Source: an uncultured Flavobacteriaceae bacterium (GTDB lineage: Bacteria; Bacteroidota; Bacteroidia; Flavobacteriales; Flavobacteriaceae). From it: a DNA stretch of 64,000 nucleotides. The notes below the pieces were generated by a model. The model was not told the DNA's origin. It ran no database searches and saw nothing but the letters and a program-made list of their open reading frames with translations. A program made the position numbers and the translations under genes. Below, piece by piece: positions 195-6,935 of the stretch. Where the stretch lies: assembly GCA_938011315.1 (NCBI GenBank), contig CALLUG010000010.1, forward strand, positions 1 through 64,000, given 5' to 3'. Each line of letters starts with the position of its first letter. Within the stretch, counting starts at the first letter, position 1.

Positions 195-1769
195 TTACTT
201 ACGGAGTCTTTTCTTTTTCAACTTATTTCTGATTTTAGTTAATTTTAGTAAGTCTTCATTATTAATTCCGAGGGTAGAATTAAGGATGTTATAGTCATTC
301 TGTATTAGTATTTCTTCAATATTTGATTTGTTCTCAAAATTAGCTGTGAAATGATTAAATTGATTAATCATAATTTTATTATATGGAATTGGTAATTTTT
401 TAAATTCACTAGGTATAAGTTCTAAAACTCCTCCGCCATAATATCTCCCTTCTAATTCCGATAGGAGTAGAGTTAAAGTGTTGTAAAATGAATAAATAAA
501 ACTATTCAAGTCGTAACCATTTCTCATTCTAACTTTATATGCAGAGTCTGTTACGAATGCATCGGAATTATTCTTTAAAAGCTTTGGGTATAAATGACTT
601 CTTTTAAAGAAAAAAGCATCTGGTTTCTTAGAAATATTTGGAATAATATACCAATTTTTTCTAATTCCACATTTATGTCTTTGAGGTAATTTTTCTAATA
701 CACCAACATCTAAATATTCCCTTAATTTCTTTGAAATTTTATCGGTATCATTTAATTGTAAAAGTTTCGTTGGGCGATTGTCCTTTTCAAGTTTTTGAAT
801 ATCGTTATCATTAAAAACGACACTTCCATTTACAAAAAGACCTTTTTGGATAATTGGTTTAGTGTATTTCGATAAGTTATATTTATTTTCAGTTTCTTTA
901 TCAATTATAAAATAGTTGTTTGCTCCAGTTACAATTCCAGGCTTAGATTCAGAATAATCATTAACCGTTTTAAGTTCTTTCTTTAAATTTTCAATGAAAG
1001 TTAACTCATCAGAAGTTAAAAAATGATGTGTCCATTTTACTTTTGATTCAACTAATAAATTATTATTATTTAAAACAAAGCTATTTTGTTGTAATGATTC
1101 TTTTGATGAAATATTAGTAAAGAATTCGCCTTTTTGCTCTGCTTTTTTATAAGCAAATAGAACAATTGTATCTTGCCCTTTACATTCAAACATAAGGTCA
1201 TTGAACGTAAAAATTTCAATTCTTTCAAATTCTTTTTTTAAATATTCACGAACTTCTTCTGCAAATTTAACTTGTAATAATTCTGAAGGTAAAACAAATG
1301 CTAAAACTCCATTTTTAGTTAATAATGTATTTGCTTTAACCAAAAATGTAGCCCAAATATTTTTAACTGAAGCTTCAGTTAAATTTTCGTTTGAATGTAT
1401 CTCTTTGCTTAATTTAATTTGTTTTGAGGTAAGAATATTTTTTTTTACATAAGGTGGATTTCCAATAACTGCTGAATATTGTTTATTGATTGAATATTCT
1501 AAGAAATCTGTTTTTACAAATGATGCAGTTTTTTTACTCCATTTTTTAGAAGCTGTATTTAACTCAACTCTATTAATGTCTAATGCCGTTAAATTGATGT
1601 TTATGTTTTCTTCTTTAGCTAATTCAGAAATAAAAGCACCATCTCCAACACTTGGCTCTAAAATAGACATACGGGCTCTGTTTTCAAAATGAGATAAAAC
1701 TCTTTTTGAAATAAAACTCGCCAAATATTGTGGCGTGTAATATGAACCTGTTTGTTTTTGGTTTGTCAT
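195..1769 (-). CDS. Class I N6-adenine DNA methyltransferase (Eco57I/TaqI-like)
   Basis: This 524-aa protein begins with the GSYYTPQYLASFI segment typical of this group. It then shows an S-adenosylmethionine motif I (ILEPSVGDGAF, residues about 36-46) and the catalytic NPPY motif (about 104-107), the signature of amino-methylation of adenine. The C-terminal two thirds resemble a target-recognition region with no nuclease motif that I can see. It is the last gene of a four-gene minus-strand operon, starting 4 bp after the HNH nuclease gene stops. By context it probably protects the host DNA from the nuclease, or marks DNA for the module. The recognition sequence cannot be read from the sequence. 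A stand-alone (orphan) methylase is the alternative, but the tight spacing argues for a shared role. Confidence 0.85.
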   Translation of the reverse strand: MTNQKQTGSYYTPQYLASFISKRVLSHFENRARMSILEPSVGDGAFISELAKEENININLTALDINRVELNTASKKWSKKTASFVKTDFLEYSINKQYSAVIGNPPYVKKNILTSKQIKLSKEIHSNENLTEASVKNIWATFLVKANTLLTKNGVLAFVLPSELLQVKFAEEVREYLKKEFERIEIFTFNDLMFECKGQDTIVLFAYKKAEQKGEFFTNISSKESLQQNSFVLNNNNLLVESKVKWTHHFLTSDELTFIENLKKELKTVNDYSESKPGIVTGANNYFIIDKETENKYNLSKYTKPIIQKGLFVNGSVVFNDNDIQKLEKDNRPTKLLQLNDTDKISKKLREYLDVGVLEKLPQRHKCGIRKNWYIIPNISKKPDAFFFKRSHLYPKLLKNNSDAFVTDSAYKVRMRNGYDLNSFIYSFYNTLTLLLSELEGRYYGGGVLELIPSEFKKLPIPYNKIMINQFNHFTANFENKSNIEEILIQNDYNILNSTLGINNEDLLKLTKIRNKLKKKRLRK

Positions 1770-1773
1770 AGCG

Positions 1774-2397
1774 TTATATACTATTATAGTGTTCTATAAG
1801 TGCTTTGTCATATTTATAATATTCAAAACTTAACTTTTCAGCTTTTGCTTTAATTTCATTATATTCATTAGAGCCTTCTTCTCTTTTGTTTAACTCAATA
1901 ATAAAAATATCAATTAGTTTTCTTCTTTCGTTCAATTCCCATAAAAGTCTAAGTGCATAATTTCTTTCATCAAACTTAAATGCCGTTTCCCACATCCATT
2001 TTCCTAAGTTTGTACTCCACATAATTCCACCATCATCTGTTCGGTATAAGTGAGTGTCATAATCTTCATCACAAGGGTCTACAAAACCTTTATCATTGGC
2101 ATTTGATATACTAATATCTTCTGTTGGCCATTTTGCAAGTTTTTTATTGTTACAAAATTTACAAGAATAAACTAGGTTTGAATATTCCACATCTGATATT
2201 TTACCTTCTAATAATGATTTAGGAATAAAATGGTCAACTTCATACCAAGTGTGTCTATAGCCATCATAAGAACCACAGTAACCACAATGTGAGTGAAAAT
2301 CTTCACGTAAATCAGGTTTGTGTTTTGTCCAATTCCCCTCTTCAGGCGATTTTGTTGGCTCAGGACGTCTTATAGGTAGTTTGTCCCTTACTTTCAT
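1774..2397 (-). CDS. HNH endonuclease family protein
   Basis: The 207-aa protein has the zinc-finger form of the HNH fold. Cys38 and Cys41 (HCGYCG) are followed by the catalytic pair Asp55-His56 (YEVDHFIPKS), then Asn74 (SNLVYSC), and Cys79/Cys82 with Asn83 (CKFCNN). These are the metal-binding and catalytic residues of HNH nucleases that cut DNA. The C-terminal half is charged and helical and may bind a partner. The gene starts inside the stop codon of the receiver-domain gene (ATGA overlap), so the two are translationally coupled. Beside a methyltransferase it is the obvious effector. It is too small for a complete type II enzyme with its own specificity, so it may depend on the ATPase/receiver proteins. 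Confidence 0.85.
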   Translation of the reverse strand: MKVRDKLPIRRPEPTKSPEEGNWTKHKPDLREDFHSHCGYCGSYDGYRHTWYEVDHFIPKSLLEGKISDVEYSNLVYSCKFCNNKKLAKWPTEDISISNANDKGFVDPCDEDYDTHLYRTDDGGIMWSTNLGKWMWETAFKFDERNYALRLLWELNERRKLIDIFIIELNKREEGSNEYNEIKAKAEKLSFEYYKYDKALIEHYNSI

Positions 2398-3056
2398 TTC
2401 TTCTTGCTTTTTTCAATTAATGATTGCAAGAATGCTTCAGCTTCTTTTCGAGTTTTAGATAAATCATCTAATTTCTCGAATGAAATTAATTTTTCTGGAA
2501 TTTCTTTCTTTTTAGTTTTATCTAAATCGCTTAATTCTCTTTGTAAAGAAATTAGCGAGTCCTGCTCTGATGAACTCAATCCTTCTTCTTCTCCTTTTAC
2601 CAATAATTCAGAAATTAAAGTCTTCTTTTTATCTATGTGATTACGATATTGAAGAATACTTTTTTCAAGTTCCATTGTGAATTTTTTTGCTGATTCCTCT
2701 GTTTCAAAAACATCCCCTTTGTCGTATATTTTCATCCAGTCTTCAACAAACTCTTCTGCAAAAGATTTATCACTTGTGAAAATTATATAAGGGAATCTAG
2801 GCTTATTATCATAAAAATCACTTTCAATTAAATGACCATTGAAACTAACCATATTTGTTCCATTCAAATTGAAATCAATCATTAATAAGTCAATATCATT
2901 TGCATCATAAACTTGTGTCATTAATTCATTGAAAGTCATTCCTTGTTCAAAATTAAAACCTCTTACATTAAATCCATAAGGTCTCAATCTACGAGCATAA
3001 GTGTTTACTTCGTTTGGATCTTCGTCTATGTAGCCAATAGTGTATTTTGTTTTCAT
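2394..3056 (-). CDS. Receiver-domain (response-regulator-like) protein with coiled-coil tail
   Basis: The first ~120 residues form a CheY-like receiver domain with every catalytic position in place: the acidic pocket Asp11-Glu12-Asp13 (YIDEDPNE), the phospho-acceptor Asp61 (LLMIDFN), Thr94 (IIFTSD) and Lys113 (YDKGD). The remaining ~100 residues are highly charged and predicted helical or coiled-coil. There is no DNA-binding output domain, so it is not an ordinary transcription factor. The gene begins 3 bp after the ATPase/kinase gene ends and overlaps the HNH gene by 4 bp. The likely job is to carry a phosphoryl signal from the kinase-like protein to the nuclease or methylase. The domain call is firm; the role is inference. 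Confidence 0.8.
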   Translation of the reverse strand: MKTKYTIGYIDEDPNEVNTYARRLRPYGFNVRGFNFEQGMTFNELMTQVYDANDIDLLMIDFNLNGTNMVSFNGHLIESDFYDNKPRFPYIIFTSDKSFAEEFVEDWMKIYDKGDVFETEESAKKFTMELEKSILQYRNHIDKKKTLISELLVKGEEEGLSSSEQDSLISLQRELSDLDKTKKKEIPEKLISFEKLDDLSKTRKEAEAFLQSLIEKSKKK

Positions 3057-3059
3057 AAT

Positions 3060-5495
3060 TTATTTCTTTCTTGTCAGGAAAACGATTTTAACTTTAAAAC
3101 CTTTGTCTGTTTCTAAAATATCAATGTCGCCATTATTGTCGTCAATTACACTTTTAACCAAATACATCCCTAAACCTGTTCCGATTTCATCTCCTTTTCT
3201 ATTCTTTTTAGAAGTTGTGAATGCAAGGAAAATATCTTCTTTTGTTGTGAATACCTTTGGAATACCAGCACCATTGTCTGAATATATAAATTCTAGTGTT
3301 TCATTTTTAATAGAAGATTCTATTTTTATTTCTCTATTCTGAACTTTTTTAAGGCTTTCAAATGAATCTATTGAATTATTAATGAGATTTGAAAAAATTG
3401 TGCTAATATCCATTTCAAAAGCCCTAAAGCTGTAGTTTTTATCTTTTAGATTATCTACTAACTCTAATTTTATGTCTTTTGATTTTAAGACTTTCTTCCA
3501 ATTTTTTTCTAATGATTTAAAATAAGTTGAAAAATTTAAAGCTCCTCTTTTCCTTTTATCTTTCTGAATCGAGGTAAGCGAATAATTTACCCAATGCTTA
3601 ATCTTTTCATTATTTTCTTTGAGCAAATTAATAATATCAATACCATCTTTATACTCAATACCTTTTTTTAATTCTTTCTCGATAAGGTTTTTGTATATTA
3701 CTTCTAAGGAAATAATTTCTGATGAGTTATTTCGTATTTGTTTTAATTCGTGTGCAAAAGAAGAAACTATAAGTCCTAAACTAGCAAGTGCACGAACTTG
3801 AACTATTTCTTCATTTTCCTTTTGTGCTTTTTCTTCATCTATAGCTTTAAAAGTATCTTTAAAAGCCTGTTCATAGGTTTTTTTTTCCTCTTTTTCTTGT
3901 TCTTTTTGAAATAAATCTACAGTATCTTTTTTCTTGCCATAAACTTTTTCATCGACTTCTTTTCGCTTCTCAATAATTTTAGAAGCTAGTTTTTCAGCTC
4001 TTCGTTGAATTTCGGCTTCTCTTTCAGCTTCTTTTTCTTGTTTGAAATGCTTATAGAAAGGGTTTAAAATTTTTGTTCTATCTATTTCAAATTCTCGTAT
4101 AACGCCACCAATTATTACTTTGAATAAATCAAAAGAATCATTTTCTTGGAGAGAATCCCTGTCCGATTTATCAATTAATAAAGGATTTGTTTTTCTAGAA
4201 ATAGTTATTATACCAGCTGTTTGTTCTGGTCTAACTCTCCAATCTCCGATTCTTTGTCCTGCACCAGCTGGACTTTGAGCTACTTTTGCTCCTAATTTTA
4301 GCCAATCATTAGTTGGGTCACCATAAGGCCTAACTCTAAATGAATCTCTATAAACTTTAACACCTCCAAATTTACTCAAAACTGAACGCCTTTCTGAAGC
4401 AATAACTGTTTTGTACGGATATCCTTCTTTAGAAGAATTTGAATATTTTAAATAATAAAAAGTTAAATCGAATGAACCGACATTTTTTAATTGATTTTTT
4501 TGTGAATCGTCTAATTTCCAATTTAAAATTTCATCAATTGGTTTAGAATAGCTAAATGTTTTGTTGAGGATAGTTTTTAAATCATATGGTTTTTTTGCGT
4601 TATTAAATATGAAAGCATAATTCTCTTTAACTTTTTTCAAGTCAAGTTCATTTCTGGTTATTTCAAAGTTTACTTTTAATTTATCCGCATTATAGTTTGC
4701 AGCTAATTTATAATCATAATCATTGAAGAAAGCAGTATTCACTTCTCCAAATTCATCAGGATTTTGAAAATGATGAAAATATACTTCAAAAGGAATTTTT
4801 AATTCTTTTGGTGGTATTAATGCTTCCAAATTTTTAAAAACATCATTTATACTATCTTCATCCCAACTATCTTTTAAATTGTTTATTTTAAGGATTGTTC
4901 CTTTATTAAAAGAAACATTTTTAATCTGCTTTTCTAATCTTGTATTTCCTTTAATAATTGATTTTATCTTCTCGGATAGATTTAGACTAATTGGTTCTAT
5001 ATCTGCTTCAATTTGAGAAATGATTTTATCTGAATCATCAAATTGATTCCAATCCATTTTCCAATATGTCCCTTGGTTTTTTTGTGTTTTTTTAGGCAAT
5101 GTCCACATTTCTGTCTCAAACCCTAGTCTATCTAATGCAAATCTACCAATTCCTTTTGCTCCAGTTTTGGTACGTTTGTCTTCTGAGATAAAATATTTTT
5201 CTTTGTTCCCTGTTCCAATTTGCATCCAATGGTCATTTATGACTTTTTCAGTCATTCCTTCCCCATTGTCAATTATGTACAAAACACTCTTCTCTTTTAT
5301 AGGAACTTTATATTCCTTTCCATTTTTATCATGTTTTGTTTCAAAAGGAATATCAAAAAAGACAAAACAATTGTTTGCATCAGCATCATAGGAGTTTTTA
5401 ACCAACTCAATTATGGCACCCTCAGGATTAGAGAAATTTTCTCTACCTAATAGTTTACCCGCTCTAGCAGAAACTTTAAAAGGTATTTTAGCCAT
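3060..5495 (-). CDS. Double GHKL ATPase: Hsp90/MORC-like N-terminus plus histidine-kinase-like C-terminus
   Basis: The 811-aa protein carries two GHKL ATP-binding domains. The N-terminal one has an N box with Glu30 and Asn34 (IIELVKNSYDA), a DNGEGM box at 76-81 and a glycine lid GAKGIGRFA at 112-120, as in Hsp90, MutL and MORC ATPases. A long charged region (about 500-580) leads to FAHELKQ, where His582 sits like the phospho-acceptor of a dimerisation/HisKA helix. A second ATPase domain follows with NLINNSIDSF (about 703), SDNGAGI (about 739-745) and GTGLGMYLVK (about 772-781). There are no transmembrane segments, so it acts in the cytoplasm. It is the first gene of the operon with the receiver, HNH nuclease and methyltransferase genes. 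It probably senses DNA or phage state and phosphorylates the receiver. Whether the N-terminal domain is a clamp is unknown. Confidence 0.8.
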   Translation of the reverse strand: MAKIPFKVSARAGKLLGRENFSNPEGAIIELVKNSYDADANNCFVFFDIPFETKHDKNGKEYKVPIKEKSVLYIIDNGEGMTEKVINDHWMQIGTGNKEKYFISEDKRTKTGAKGIGRFALDRLGFETEMWTLPKKTQKNQGTYWKMDWNQFDDSDKIISQIEADIEPISLNLSEKIKSIIKGNTRLEKQIKNVSFNKGTILKINNLKDSWDEDSINDVFKNLEALIPPKELKIPFEVYFHHFQNPDEFGEVNTAFFNDYDYKLAANYNADKLKVNFEITRNELDLKKVKENYAFIFNNAKKPYDLKTILNKTFSYSKPIDEILNWKLDDSQKNQLKNVGSFDLTFYYLKYSNSSKEGYPYKTVIASERRSVLSKFGGVKVYRDSFRVRPYGDPTNDWLKLGAKVAQSPAGAGQRIGDWRVRPEQTAGIITISRKTNPLLIDKSDRDSLQENDSFDLFKVIIGGVIREFEIDRTKILNPFYKHFKQEKEAEREAEIQRRAEKLASKIIEKRKEVDEKVYGKKKDTVDLFQKEQEKEEKKTYEQAFKDTFKAIDEEKAQKENEEIVQVRALASLGLIVSSFAHELKQIRNNSSEIISLEVIYKNLIEKELKKGIEYKDGIDIINLLKENNEKIKHWVNYSLTSIQKDKRKRGALNFSTYFKSLEKNWKKVLKSKDIKLELVDNLKDKNYSFRAFEMDISTIFSNLINNSIDSFESLKKVQNREIKIESSIKNETLEFIYSDNGAGIPKVFTTKEDIFLAFTTSKKNRKGDEIGTGLGMYLVKSVIDDNNGDIDILETDKGFKVKIVFLTRKK

Positions 5496-5706
5496 TATTC
5501 AGTTTTAAATATTTACAAACTTCTTCTAGTACAATGGATGGTTTTTTGTCAATCGCTAACGTAATTAGATATAATTCATTAACTGTAAATCGAGTAGATT
5601 CATTAAGATTTGATTCACTAAGTTTAGAGGTGCTAATCCTGTTTGTCTAGCGATTTCAGCTTTGTTTACCTATTTTTTATTTAAAAACTTATCTATTTTC
5701 AGTCAT
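5488..5706 (-). pseudogene. Broken XRE-type helix-turn-helix regulator upstream of the ATPase operon
   Basis: The minus strand still spells a small HTH regulator of about 70 codons, but in pieces. MTENR starts at 5706 and meets a stop at once. In the next frame DKFLNKK is followed by a TAG, then NKAEIARQTG (the helix-turn-helix). After a further frameshift comes ESTRFTVNELYLITLAIDKK and then a short tail ending at 5488. That tail overlaps the ATPase start codon by several bases, which shows the two genes were once translationally coupled. At least two frameshifts and one nonsense codon are needed to explain it. It was most likely the control protein of the operon, now lost. Confidence 0.7.
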
Positions 5707-5936: not shown

Positions 5937-6935
5937 TTGGTAAAAATAGGCGATATACAACTCCCAGACTTTCCACTGCTACTAGCTCCTATGGAAGATG
6001 TTAGCGATCCACCATTTAGAGCTCTATGTAAAGAGCAAGGCGCAGATTTGGTTTATACTGAATTTATATCGAGCGAAGGCCTAATTAGAGATGCAGCCAA
6101 AAGCACAATGAAACTAGACATTTATGAAAAAGAGCGTCCAGTAGGTATTCAAATTTTTGGTGCCAATCTCGATTCTATGCTCAAGTCTGTTGAAATTGTA
6201 GAAAAGTCTAAGCCAGATATTATTGATATTAACTTTGGTTGCCCAGTCAAAAAAGTGGTAAGCAAAGGCGCTGGTGCAGGAATTTTAAAAGATATCGACC
6301 TTATGGTGTCTTTAACCAAAGCTATGGTAAAGCATACAAAACTACCAATTACAGTAAAAACCCGTTTAGGTTGGGACCATAATTCTATTAAAATTGTTGA
6401 GGTAGCAGAACGCTTACAAGATATAGGATGCAAAGCAATCGCTATTCATGGTAGGACTAGAGCGCAGATGTATAAAGGCGATGCCGACTGGAACCCTATT
6501 GCTGAGGTAAAAAATAACCCACGAATGCACATTCCTGTGTTTGGTAATGGCGATGTTAATACGCCAAAAAGAGCGATGTTAATGCGAGATACTTATGGTC
6601 TAGATGGTGCTATGATTGGTCGTGCTACTATTGGCAATCCTTGGTTTTTTAAGCAAGTAAAACATTTTTTTAATACAGGAACGCATTTGCCCCCAGTATC
6701 TTTGCAAGAGCGTGTTGCCGCAGCACGACGACATTTAGAAATGGCTATCGCTTGGAAAGGCGAAACCCTAGGTGTTTTTGAAACCCGCAGACATTATACA
6801 AACTACTTTAAGGGCATCCCTAATTTTAAACCTTACCGTACTAAAATGGTAACTAGCGATAAGTCGGAAGACGTATTTGCAGCGTTTGATATGGTTTTAG
6901 AAAATTTTTCTGATTATCAATTTGCAACACCATAA
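5937..6935 (+). CDS. dusB: tRNA-dihydrouridine synthase B
   Basis: This 332-aa FMN enzyme reduces uridine to dihydrouridine in the D-loop of tRNAs. Visible hallmarks are LLAPMEDVSDPPFR near the N-terminus (flavin binding), GVQIFG-type strand (VGIQIFGAN), DINFGCPVKKV with the catalytic cysteine, KTRLGW, and IHGRTRAQMYKG, plus GNGDV and GAMIGRATIGNPW. The reading frame starts with TTG. Family members begin MVKIG at the same place and no ATG is available nearby, so TTG is the likely start. It is transcribed alone and convergent with the permease gene downstream, with only 14 bp between them. Confidence 0.93.
   Translation: MVKIGDIQLPDFPLLLAPMEDVSDPPFRALCKEQGADLVYTEFISSEGLIRDAAKSTMKLDIYEKERPVGIQIFGANLDSMLKSVEIVEKSKPDIIDINFGCPVKKVVSKGAGAGILKDIDLMVSLTKAMVKHTKLPITVKTRLGWDHNSIKIVEVAERLQDIGCKAIAIHGRTRAQMYKGDADWNPIAEVKNNPRMHIPVFGNGDVNTPKRAMLMRDTYGLDGAMIGRATIGNPWFFKQVKHFFNTGTHLPPVSLQERVAAARRHLEMAIAWKGETLGVFETRRHYTNYFKGIPNFKPYRTKMVTSDKSEDVFAAFDMVLENFSDYQFATP

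What the first reader, a model, noticed from the sequence alone, without database searches (positions are those of the whole stretch)
3060..5495. Histidine-kinase half fused to an Hsp90-type ATPase in one soluble protein
The protein has no transmembrane segment or sensor domain. The sensor may be the N-terminal GHKL domain itself, which in MutL and MORC closes around DNA. If so, clamp closure on DNA could directly trigger kinase activity.
Basis: inference. Interest (0 to 1): 0.6.

Follow-up and report, generated by a model that had tools for sequence, protein, structure and literature searches.

The report
MORC-type histidine kinase in restriction operon
A soluble protein that joins a DNA-clamp-like ATPase to a seemingly intact histidine kinase sits in a conserved four-gene bacterial operon with a receiver protein, a DNA-cutting enzyme and a DNA-marking enzyme, which suggests a defence system whose cutting may be switched on by a phosphate relay.

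Summary
The 811-aa protein has an N-terminal GHKL ATPase plus transducer with a MORC/Hsp90/MutL-like predicted fold (residues 9-482), a coiled coil, and a histidine-kinase DHp and catalytic domain.

In 82 of 85 loci the gene is followed by a receiver-like protein with intact phospho-acceptor Asp (82 of 82), then a PtuB-like HNH nuclease; the other 3 end at a contig edge. In 76 of 76 loci with room, an Eco57I-type methyltransferase adjoins (75 downstream, 1 upstream). Kinase, receiver and HNH diverge together (pairwise identity r 0.87-0.94); the methyltransferase is swapped (r 0.31-0.35; 9 family changes on the tree).

Best reading: a restriction-like cassette in which a MORC-type clamp drives a His-Asp relay that gates an HNH nuclease. 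Operon and chemistry rest on conservation; DNA sensing, phosphotransfer and gating are inferred.

The architecture is published (HATPase_c_3 + HEF_HK + HATPase_c beside R-M genes, 2021), with the N-terminal domain already proposed as sensor. This family does not match that HEF_HK profile (0 of 57) and has a different cassette: a new variant of a known kind.

The parts
3060..5495 (-). MORC/Hsp90-type GHKL ATPase fused to a histidine kinase (811 aa, P0001)
   Evidence: ORF and translation; Pfam; AF2 model and fold searches
4956..5495 (-). N-terminal GHKL ATPase domain, residues about 1-180 (E30, N34, D76xG78xG80, G112-G117)
   Evidence: HATPase_c_3; motif conservation
4056..4955 (-). Transducer (S5-like) region, residues about 181-480, with the GGhxhaRDxhRhxPYG motif from residue 377
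   Evidence: MORC3, TRAP1, Hsc82 and MutL aligned over 9-482; motif in 72 of 83
3561..3800 (-). DHp helices, residues about 566-645
   Evidence: aligned to ZraS and HK853; pLDDT below 50 at 567-580 and 639-644
3750..3752 (-). codon of H582, predicted phosphorylation site
   Evidence: H in 83 of 83; next residue E (60) or D (23)
3063..3560 (-). Catalytic (CA) domain, residues about 646-811
   Evidence: HATPase_c 696-806; N703, N707, D740, G742, G744, G772, G774, G776 all 83 of 83
2394..3056 (-). Receiver-like protein (220 aa): REC fold plus a helical tail of about 100 residues; no DNA-binding domain found
   Evidence: AF2 pLDDT 90.6; Foldseek receivers; profile hit to the PhoP receiver E 1.9e-6; 25 of 58 homologues match Pfam Response_reg at E <= 0.01, this member does not
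2874..2876 (-). codon of D61, predicted phospho-acceptor
   Evidence: D in 82 of 82; D11 79, E12 80, T94 80, K113 80 of 82
1774..2397 (-). HNH nuclease (207 aa), PtuB-like
   Evidence: Pfam HNH E 8.2e-8; PADLOC PtuB E 2.2e-15; C38, D55, H56, N74, C79, N83 82 of 82
195..1769 (-). Eco57I-type N6-adenine DNA methyltransferase (524 aa)
   Evidence: Pfam M_Eco57I_C E 1.3e-39, Eco57I E 1.6e-16; PADLOC MTase_II E 2.4e-143
5488..5706 (-). degenerate (frame-broken) small XRE-type HTH gene overlapping the kinase start; ends read by eye
   Evidence: similar to intact HTH in L012 and L020; stops and shifts in the window copy

Best explanation
The protein is the sensor-kinase of a four-gene restriction-like defence cassette. 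Proposed mechanism: (1) the DHp region holds a constitutive dimer, and the N-terminal MORC-type GHKL-transducer arms close with ATP, probably around DNA that lacks the cassette's own adenine mark; (2) closure is passed down the coiled coil to the DHp, so the CA domain phosphorylates H582; (3) the phosphoryl group moves to D61 of the receiver-like protein; (4) the phosphorylated receiver, which has no recognisable DNA-binding domain, acts by contact and licenses the HNH nuclease; (5) the Eco57I-type methyltransferase protects the host and sets what counts as self. Shown by sequence or structure prediction: domain folds, intact kinase and receiver residues, conserved operon, joint divergence of kinase, receiver and HNH, exchange of the methyltransferase. 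Inferred: DNA as the signal, the order of events, phosphotransfer between these two proteins, gating of the nuclease, and defence as the purpose.
For: Residues 9-482 match MORC3 (5ix2, Z 19.7, 304 aligned), TRAP1 (Z 19.6) and MutL (Z 18.1); about 566-811 match ZraS (Z 19.9) and HK853 (Z about 18); MORC2 chains top Foldseek, DNA-bound ones at ranks 5, 7, 8 and 9. H582 83 of 83 with E/D next to it in all 83; N-, G1- and G2-box residues 83 of 83; E30 81 of 81. Receiver D61 82 of 82, D11/E12/T94/K113 79-80 of 82; receiver fold. Kinase-receiver-HNH order in 82 of 85 loci, the other 3 cut by contig ends; median gaps 2 and -4 bases. Methyltransferase adjoins in 76 of 76 loci with room (75 downstream; L062 upstream, Pfam Eco57I E 2.4e-15). 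Pairwise identities: kinase-receiver r 0.94, receiver-HNH 0.89, kinase-HNH 0.87, methyltransferase with each 0.31-0.35; methyltransferase family changes 9 times on the kinase tree, 9 being also the least that well-supported branches force. Loci in nine named phyla and differing flanks suggest transfer.
Against: No biochemistry exists. The kinase-receiver covariation test did not favour the DHp-receiver docking surface: of the top 200 pairs, DHp x beta1-alpha1 had 2 (3.4 expected) and DHp x beta5-alpha5 had 4 (1.5 expected), while the largest excess was N-terminal GHKL x beta3-alpha3 (37, 6.4 expected); Neff about 40, so it is inconclusive. No kinase-receiver or receiver-HNH fusion among 82 loci. 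The DHp region is among the weakest of the model (pLDDT means 52, 45, 56 over 561-590) and no dimer or complex was modelled. The identity correlations use non-independent pairs, with the methyltransferase compared only within its family, and the methyltransferase label is clustered on the tree (9 changes against 24 for shuffles), so swapping is repeated but not frequent. 26 of 82 HNH proteins lack the second pair of cysteines. The window's own HTH gene is broken.
Confidence: 0.5

Rival explanations
1. The kinase and receiver regulate expression of the restriction genes, as an ordinary two-component system would, rather than gating the nuclease protein.
For: Control of R-M systems by such signalling, 'directly or indirectly', was speculated in print for the HEF_HK relatives (PMC8011034, Discussion); a small XRE-type HTH gene lies just upstream in 34 of 83 loci.
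Against: The receiver shows no DNA-binding domain: REC fold plus a tail of 91-115 residues in 82 homologues, and no Pfam output domain shared by the 58 scanned. The genes overlap in one operon, and the receiver diverges with the HNH (r 0.89) but hardly with the methyltransferase.
Confidence: 0.15
2. The whole protein is a paraMORC-type DNA-looping or clamp ATPase of an R-M complex; the kinase half serves as a second ATP-driven dimerisation module without phosphotransfer.
For: Fold of residues 9-482; paraMORCs are R-M associated (PMC2292703); covariation gave no docking signal.
Against: H582 is invariant and an acid follows it in 83 of 83, and a receiver with the acceptor Asp in 82 of 82 lies beside it. 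Such strict upkeep is hard to explain without phosphotransfer.
Confidence: 0.2
3. A plain type II R-M system: the HNH protein is a sequence-specific restriction enzyme matched to the methyltransferase; the kinase and receiver are accessory passengers.
For: HNH plus Eco57I-type methyltransferase adjoin in 75 of 76 loci with room and lie in one cassette in the last; HNH restriction enzymes are known (for example R.KpnI, named in PMC13092281).
Against: The methyltransferase is exchanged between two families and diverges largely independently of the HNH, unlike a matched pair; the kinase and receiver are never missing where the contig goes on (loci were found through the kinase, so HNH-methyltransferase pairs without it would not have been seen).
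Confidence: 0.15

Closest known systems
HEF_HK / Response_reg_2 two-component-like elements (Bellieny-Rabelo et al. 2021, PMC8011034)
   Same: N-terminal HATPase_c_3, DHp with conserved His, C-terminal HATPase_c, soluble, receiver-like partner gene, R-M neighbours; the kinases are homologous (profile-profile probability 100, E 5.4e-45, 700 columns, 21% identity).
   Different: 0 of 57 kinases of this family match PF19191 and 0 of 58 receivers match PF19192 at E <= 0.01, while 5 of 5 HEF_HK kinases and 3 of 3 scanned partners do. The five HEF_HK loci have 966-1001-aa kinases, an upstream C5 cytosine methylase and a 525-567-aa partner; here an 811-aa kinase, a 220-aa receiver, a separate HNH and an Eco57I-type methyltransferase. 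An intermediate exists: L116 (788 aa) scores 22-26 bits to PF19191, around its cut-off of 24.1, and E 2.9e-58 to this family's profile.
paraMORC families in R-M operons (Iyer et al. 2008, PMC2292703)
   Same: N-terminal GHKL plus S5-type domain, R-M operons, patchy spread; paraMORC1 may occur with HNH nucleases.
   Different: No DHp-CA kinase half or receiver partner is described for them in the two of three parts of the main text that I read.
MORC ATPases
   Same: Fold of the N-terminal half.
   Different: The published MORC motif GhXhhpXXRhl is absent in 83 of 83; a related motif with the Arg one place later is present in 72 of 83.
HK853-RR468-type two-component pairs
   Same: DHp-CA and receiver folds and catalytic residues.
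   Different: No HisKA Pfam match for P0001 or among 57 members; Pro at H+5 in 0 of 83; N at H+4 in 10 and T in 0 of 83 (the HisKA rules are recalled); no output domain found on the receiver.
Septu / retron PtuB HNH nucleases
   Same: HNH protein matches PtuB models (PADLOC E 2.2e-15); solved PtuB chains at E 0.014-0.054, behind Cas9-type HNH chains at E 5.6e-4 and above.
   Different: The partner ATPase is a GHKL-kinase with a receiver (no PADLOC match for P0001), and a methyltransferase adjoins.
GHKL-headed Shedu (VcSduA, PMC12137116)
   Same: N-terminal GHKL ATPase proposed to control a nuclease in anti-phage defence (passages read).
   Different: There the nuclease is fused (PD-(D/E)xK); no kinase half or receiver is mentioned in those passages.

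Membership tests
HEF_HK / Response_reg_2 element | match to Pfam PF19191 (HEF_HK) | tested here: not met
   0 of 57 members at E <= 0.01; positive control 5 of 5 HEF_HK kinases; P0001 and L014 none at E <= 1
HEF_HK / Response_reg_2 element | partner matches Pfam PF19192 (Response_reg_2) | tested here: not met
   0 of 58 members at E <= 0.01; positive control 3 of 3; profile comparison with five HEF_HK partners probability 6, E 0.0063
HEF_HK / Response_reg_2 element | domain order HATPase_c_3, His-acid DHp, HATPase_c; soluble | tested here: met
   HATPase_c in 57 and HATPase_c_3 in 56 of 57 members
Histidine kinase | phospho-acceptor His in a DHp helix plus N, G1, F, G2 boxes | tested here: met
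   H582, N703, N707, D740, G742, G744, G772, G774, G776 83 of 83; F756 78 of 83
Histidine kinase | autophosphorylation | not testable with these tools
   needs biochemistry
Response regulator receiver | receiver fold with acidic pair, acceptor Asp, Thr/Ser and Lys | tested here: met
   25 of 58 match Pfam Response_reg at E <= 0.01
MORC family proper | GhXhhpXXRhl motif in the S5-fold domain | tested here: not met
   0 of 83
paraMORC | N-terminal GHKL + S5-type domain in an R-M operon | tested here: met
paraMORC | membership of one of the families paraMORC1-5 by sequence | not tested
   no paraMORC profiles at hand
Type II restriction-modification system | DNA methyltransferase plus nuclease gene | tested here: met
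Type II restriction-modification system | nuclease and methyltransferase recognise the same site | tested here: inconclusive
   largely independent divergence argues against a matched pair; no specificity known
Septu | PtuA ATPase beside PtuB | tested here: not met
   no PADLOC match for P0001 at E <= 1

The most novel reading that the evidence does not exclude
A restriction system run by a true His-Asp phosphorelay: a MORC-type DNA clamp is itself the sensor domain of a cytoplasmic histidine kinase, and the phosphorylated stand-alone receiver directly switches on an HNH nuclease, with self/non-self set by an exchangeable methyltransferase.
Probability: 0.4. Interest if true: 0.8.

Novelty: new variant of a known kind. 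Interest (0 to 1): 0.55.

Why it matters
If the relay gates the nuclease, two-component signalling would act on DNA restriction at the protein level, and DNA itself, through a clamp, would be the signal read by a histidine kinase. The family gives clean residues to test (E30, H582, D61, HNH D55/H56) in a compact four-gene operon, and a bacterial model for how MORC-type clamps pass on the fact that they have closed. The core/exchangeable split (kinase-receiver-HNH versus methyltransferase) predicts where specificity lies.

Tried and rejected
Kinase x receiver covariation: 80 loci, Neff about 40; many of the top pairs in the receiver x HNH list join near-invariant columns and are artefacts; no clear docking signal, so it is not used as support. 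Receiver profile across 395 genomes of the phylum: 43 genomes hit at E <= 1e-6, of which 5 (G000, G101, G194, G290, G576) are strong (E < 1e-40); the other 38 are weak (1.2e-9 at best), probably ordinary receivers, not checked one by one. Sequence search of residues 1-490 against solved structures gave only sub-threshold, mostly Hsp90-type hits (best E 0.067), so the MORC/Hsp90 link rests on predicted fold. PADLOC gave no model for P0001. Phages: 2 records with partial matches (57% and 56% of the protein). Plasmids: 97 records, 23 with at least 80% coverage, top row 37.6% identity. Neither was followed further. Literature searches: (listings; up to 20 rows each); in those rows I saw no paper on this kinase-receiver-HNH-Eco57I cassette, but most subscription papers and nearly all preprints are outside the library. 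DefensePredictor (PMC13092281; passages and the figure-legend section): the abbreviation list of Fig. 6F (predicted, unvalidated systems) names HATPase and REC; whether they lie in one system, or in this one, cannot be told. PMC7159879 and PMC12839542: passages only, nothing matching.

Recalled, not from a call: the Glu/Asn distinction between hydrolytic and kinase GHKL domains, the HisKA H+4 and H+5 rules, the names PdxH and Dus for the flanking genes, and clamp closure in MutL/Hsp90.
Full report
What is there. window:3060-5495 (-) encodes an 811-aa protein with two different GHKL domains: HATPase_c_3 at 24-167 and HATPase_c at 696-806. The AlphaFold2 model made from 61 sequences (mean pLDDT 81.9, pTM 0.58) shows an N-terminal ATPase plus transducer, long helices (453-519 and 528-579), DHp helices and a CA domain. 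The N-terminal half (9-482) aligns with MORC3 (Z 19.7, 304 residues, rmsd 3.9), TRAP1 (Z 19.6), Hsc82 (Z 19.0) and MutL (Z 18.1); the C-terminal part with ZraS (Z 19.9) and HK853 (Z about 18). Foldseek ranks MORC2 chains first, DNA-bound ones from rank 5 on. By sequence profile the kinase half matches LvrB (E 1.4e-14) and HK853 (E 2.7e-11).

Two GHKL copies with different jobs. The set is 86 loci: the window, L010-L014 and L019-L098. L091 has no kinase ORF; L037 and L093 have split kinase ORFs and were dropped; 83 were aligned, of which L025 and L057 lack the N-terminal end. E30, N34, D76, G78 and G80 of the first copy are present in 81 of the 81 that cover them. In the second copy the equivalent of E30 is N703 (83 of 83), the kinase pattern (recalled rule). 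H582 is 83 of 83 and is followed by E (60) or D (23). After removing rows at least 80% identical, 66 remain and H582 is 66 of 66. At H+4, where HisKA kinases keep T or N for phosphatase activity (recalled), 10 of 83 have N and none T; Pro at H+5 is absent in all 83. This hints at a kinase without the usual phosphatase activity, an inference only.

The operon. The gene is followed by a 220-aa protein (2394-3056), a 207-aa HNH protein (1774-2397) and a 524-aa Eco57I-type methyltransferase (195-1769). The 220-aa protein is a receiver: AF2 pLDDT 90.6, Foldseek matches to receivers and PorX, profile match to the PhoP receiver E 1.9e-6; 25 of 58 homologues, though not this one, match Pfam Response_reg at E <= 0.01. 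The acceptor Asp D61 is 82 of 82, D11 79, E12 80, T94 80, K113 80 of 82. After the receiver comes a tail of 91-115 residues (82 homologues), helical in the model, with no recognisable output domain. The HNH protein resembles PtuB (PADLOC E 2.2e-15), with C38, D55, H56, N74, C79 and N83 in 82 of 82; in 26 of 82 the second two cysteines are lost together.

Conservation of the cassette. Of 85 loci with a kinase ORF, 82 also hold receiver and HNH in that order on the same strand; the other three (L040, L058, L068) end within about 0.5 kb after the kinase. In the 76 loci with at least 1.5 kb after the HNH gene, 75 have an Eco57I-type methyltransferase there, 36 nearest to the window's and 39 to a second, about 613-aa family (Pfam Eco57I E 7.4e-31 for the one member scanned); the remaining one, L062, has it directly upstream of the kinase (504 aa, Pfam Eco57I E 2.4e-15). 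Without near-duplicates the figures are 27, 30 and 1 of 58. Median gaps are 2 (kinase-receiver), -4 (receiver-HNH) and -4 (HNH-methyltransferase) bases; the largest kinase-receiver gap, 876, comes from a split kinase ORF. A few copies are broken or split (L025, L037, L093 kinase; L080 methyltransferase). A small XRE-type HTH gene precedes the kinase in 34 of 83 loci (22 of 64 without near-duplicates); the window copy is counted there but is frame-broken.

Core and exchangeable part. Pairwise identities of kinase, receiver and HNH rise and fall together (r 0.94, 0.89, 0.87) whereas the methyltransferase correlates only 0.31-0.35 with each, compared within a methyltransferase family and leaving out pairs with HNH identity of 95% or more; pairs are not independent. 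On a quick tree of 71 kinases the methyltransferase family changes 9 times (also the least forced by well-supported branches), against 24 for shuffled labels, so exchange is repeated but the label is clustered. L028, L030 and L033 have kinases 58-61% identical to the window's yet carry the other methyltransferase family. This fits a core of sensor, relay and effector with an interchangeable self-mark, and argues against an HNH enzyme matched to one methyltransferase.

Spread. 10 of 395 genomes of the class, own genome included, match at E <= 1e-20; 4 of the 10 are distant relatives with other neighbours (L015-L018). Of 80 loci from named genomes, many of them metagenome bins, 65 are Bacteroidota, 5 Pseudomonadota, one each in seven other phyla and 3 unassigned; the scan found 125 relatives and kept the best 80. 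The nearest copy in the tree (L020, 91% identical) has other flanking genes, and in 11 relatives' loci the roughly 1.5 kb beside the Dus-like flank shows no kinase ORF. So the cassette probably moves horizontally.

Relation to what is published. Bellieny-Rabelo et al. 2021 (PMC8011034; abstract, Results, Discussion) described soluble HATPase_c_3 + HEF_HK + HATPase_c proteins beside a Response_reg_2 gene and R-M genes, suggested the N-terminal domain as the sensor, and linked them to paraMORCs. Five HEF_HK loci fetched here (of 7 strong matches) carry 966-1001-aa kinases, an upstream C5 methylase (Pfam, 5 of 5) and a 525-567-aa partner (Response_reg_2 in 3 of 3 scanned). The kinase here is their homologue (profile-profile probability 100, E 5.4e-45), but 0 of 57 members match HEF_HK and 0 of 58 receivers match Response_reg_2, and the two receivers are not detectably related by profile comparison (probability 6). 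The border is not sharp: L116 lies near the HEF_HK cut-off and matches this family's profile at E 2.9e-58. Iyer et al. 2008 (PMC2292703; abstract and two of three parts of the main text) gives the paraMORC background. The MORC motif named there is absent in 83 of 83.

Judgement. What this work adds is a distinct, strongly conserved four-gene variant with a nuclease and methyltransferase, intact His and Asp on both partners, and a core/exchangeable split. DNA sensing, phosphotransfer and nuclease gating remain inferences; the one computational test of docking was inconclusive.

Noticed in passing
window:17135-19023 (-): A second, ordinary R-M pair: NgoPII-type restriction endonuclease (Pfam RE_NgoPII E 1.6e-122) and C5 cytosine methylase (E 5.5e-99).
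   Followed up: partly
window:5488-5706 (-): Frame-broken XRE-type HTH gene just upstream of the kinase; an intact relative lies at the same place in L020 and L012.
   Followed up: partly
window:1774-2397 and 81 homologues: 26 of 82 HNH proteins have lost both second cysteines (C41 and C82) together; of the 80 that also have an aligned kinase, 20 of 26 without them have Asp instead of Glu after the kinase His, against 2 of 54 with them, so the loss probably marks a clade.
   Followed up: partly
L052, L087, L092, L098: Cassettes lie beside genes that look like Bacteroidetes conjugative-transposon genes (read from ORF translations only).
   Followed up: no
L015, L016, L017, L018: More distant double-GHKL kinases beside DNA-methylase-like genes, two (L015, L016) with a 415-439-aa partner with an IDD motif; no HNH gene was recognised within the short loci held.
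   Followed up: partly
L116:2252-4618: A kinase between the HEF_HK proteins and this family in sequence, with a 687-aa neighbour that has no Pfam match.
   Followed up: partly
window:1-138 (+) and 5937-6935 (+): Flanks look like the end of PdxH and a dihydrouridine synthase (names recalled); the contig starts inside the first gene.
   Followed up: no
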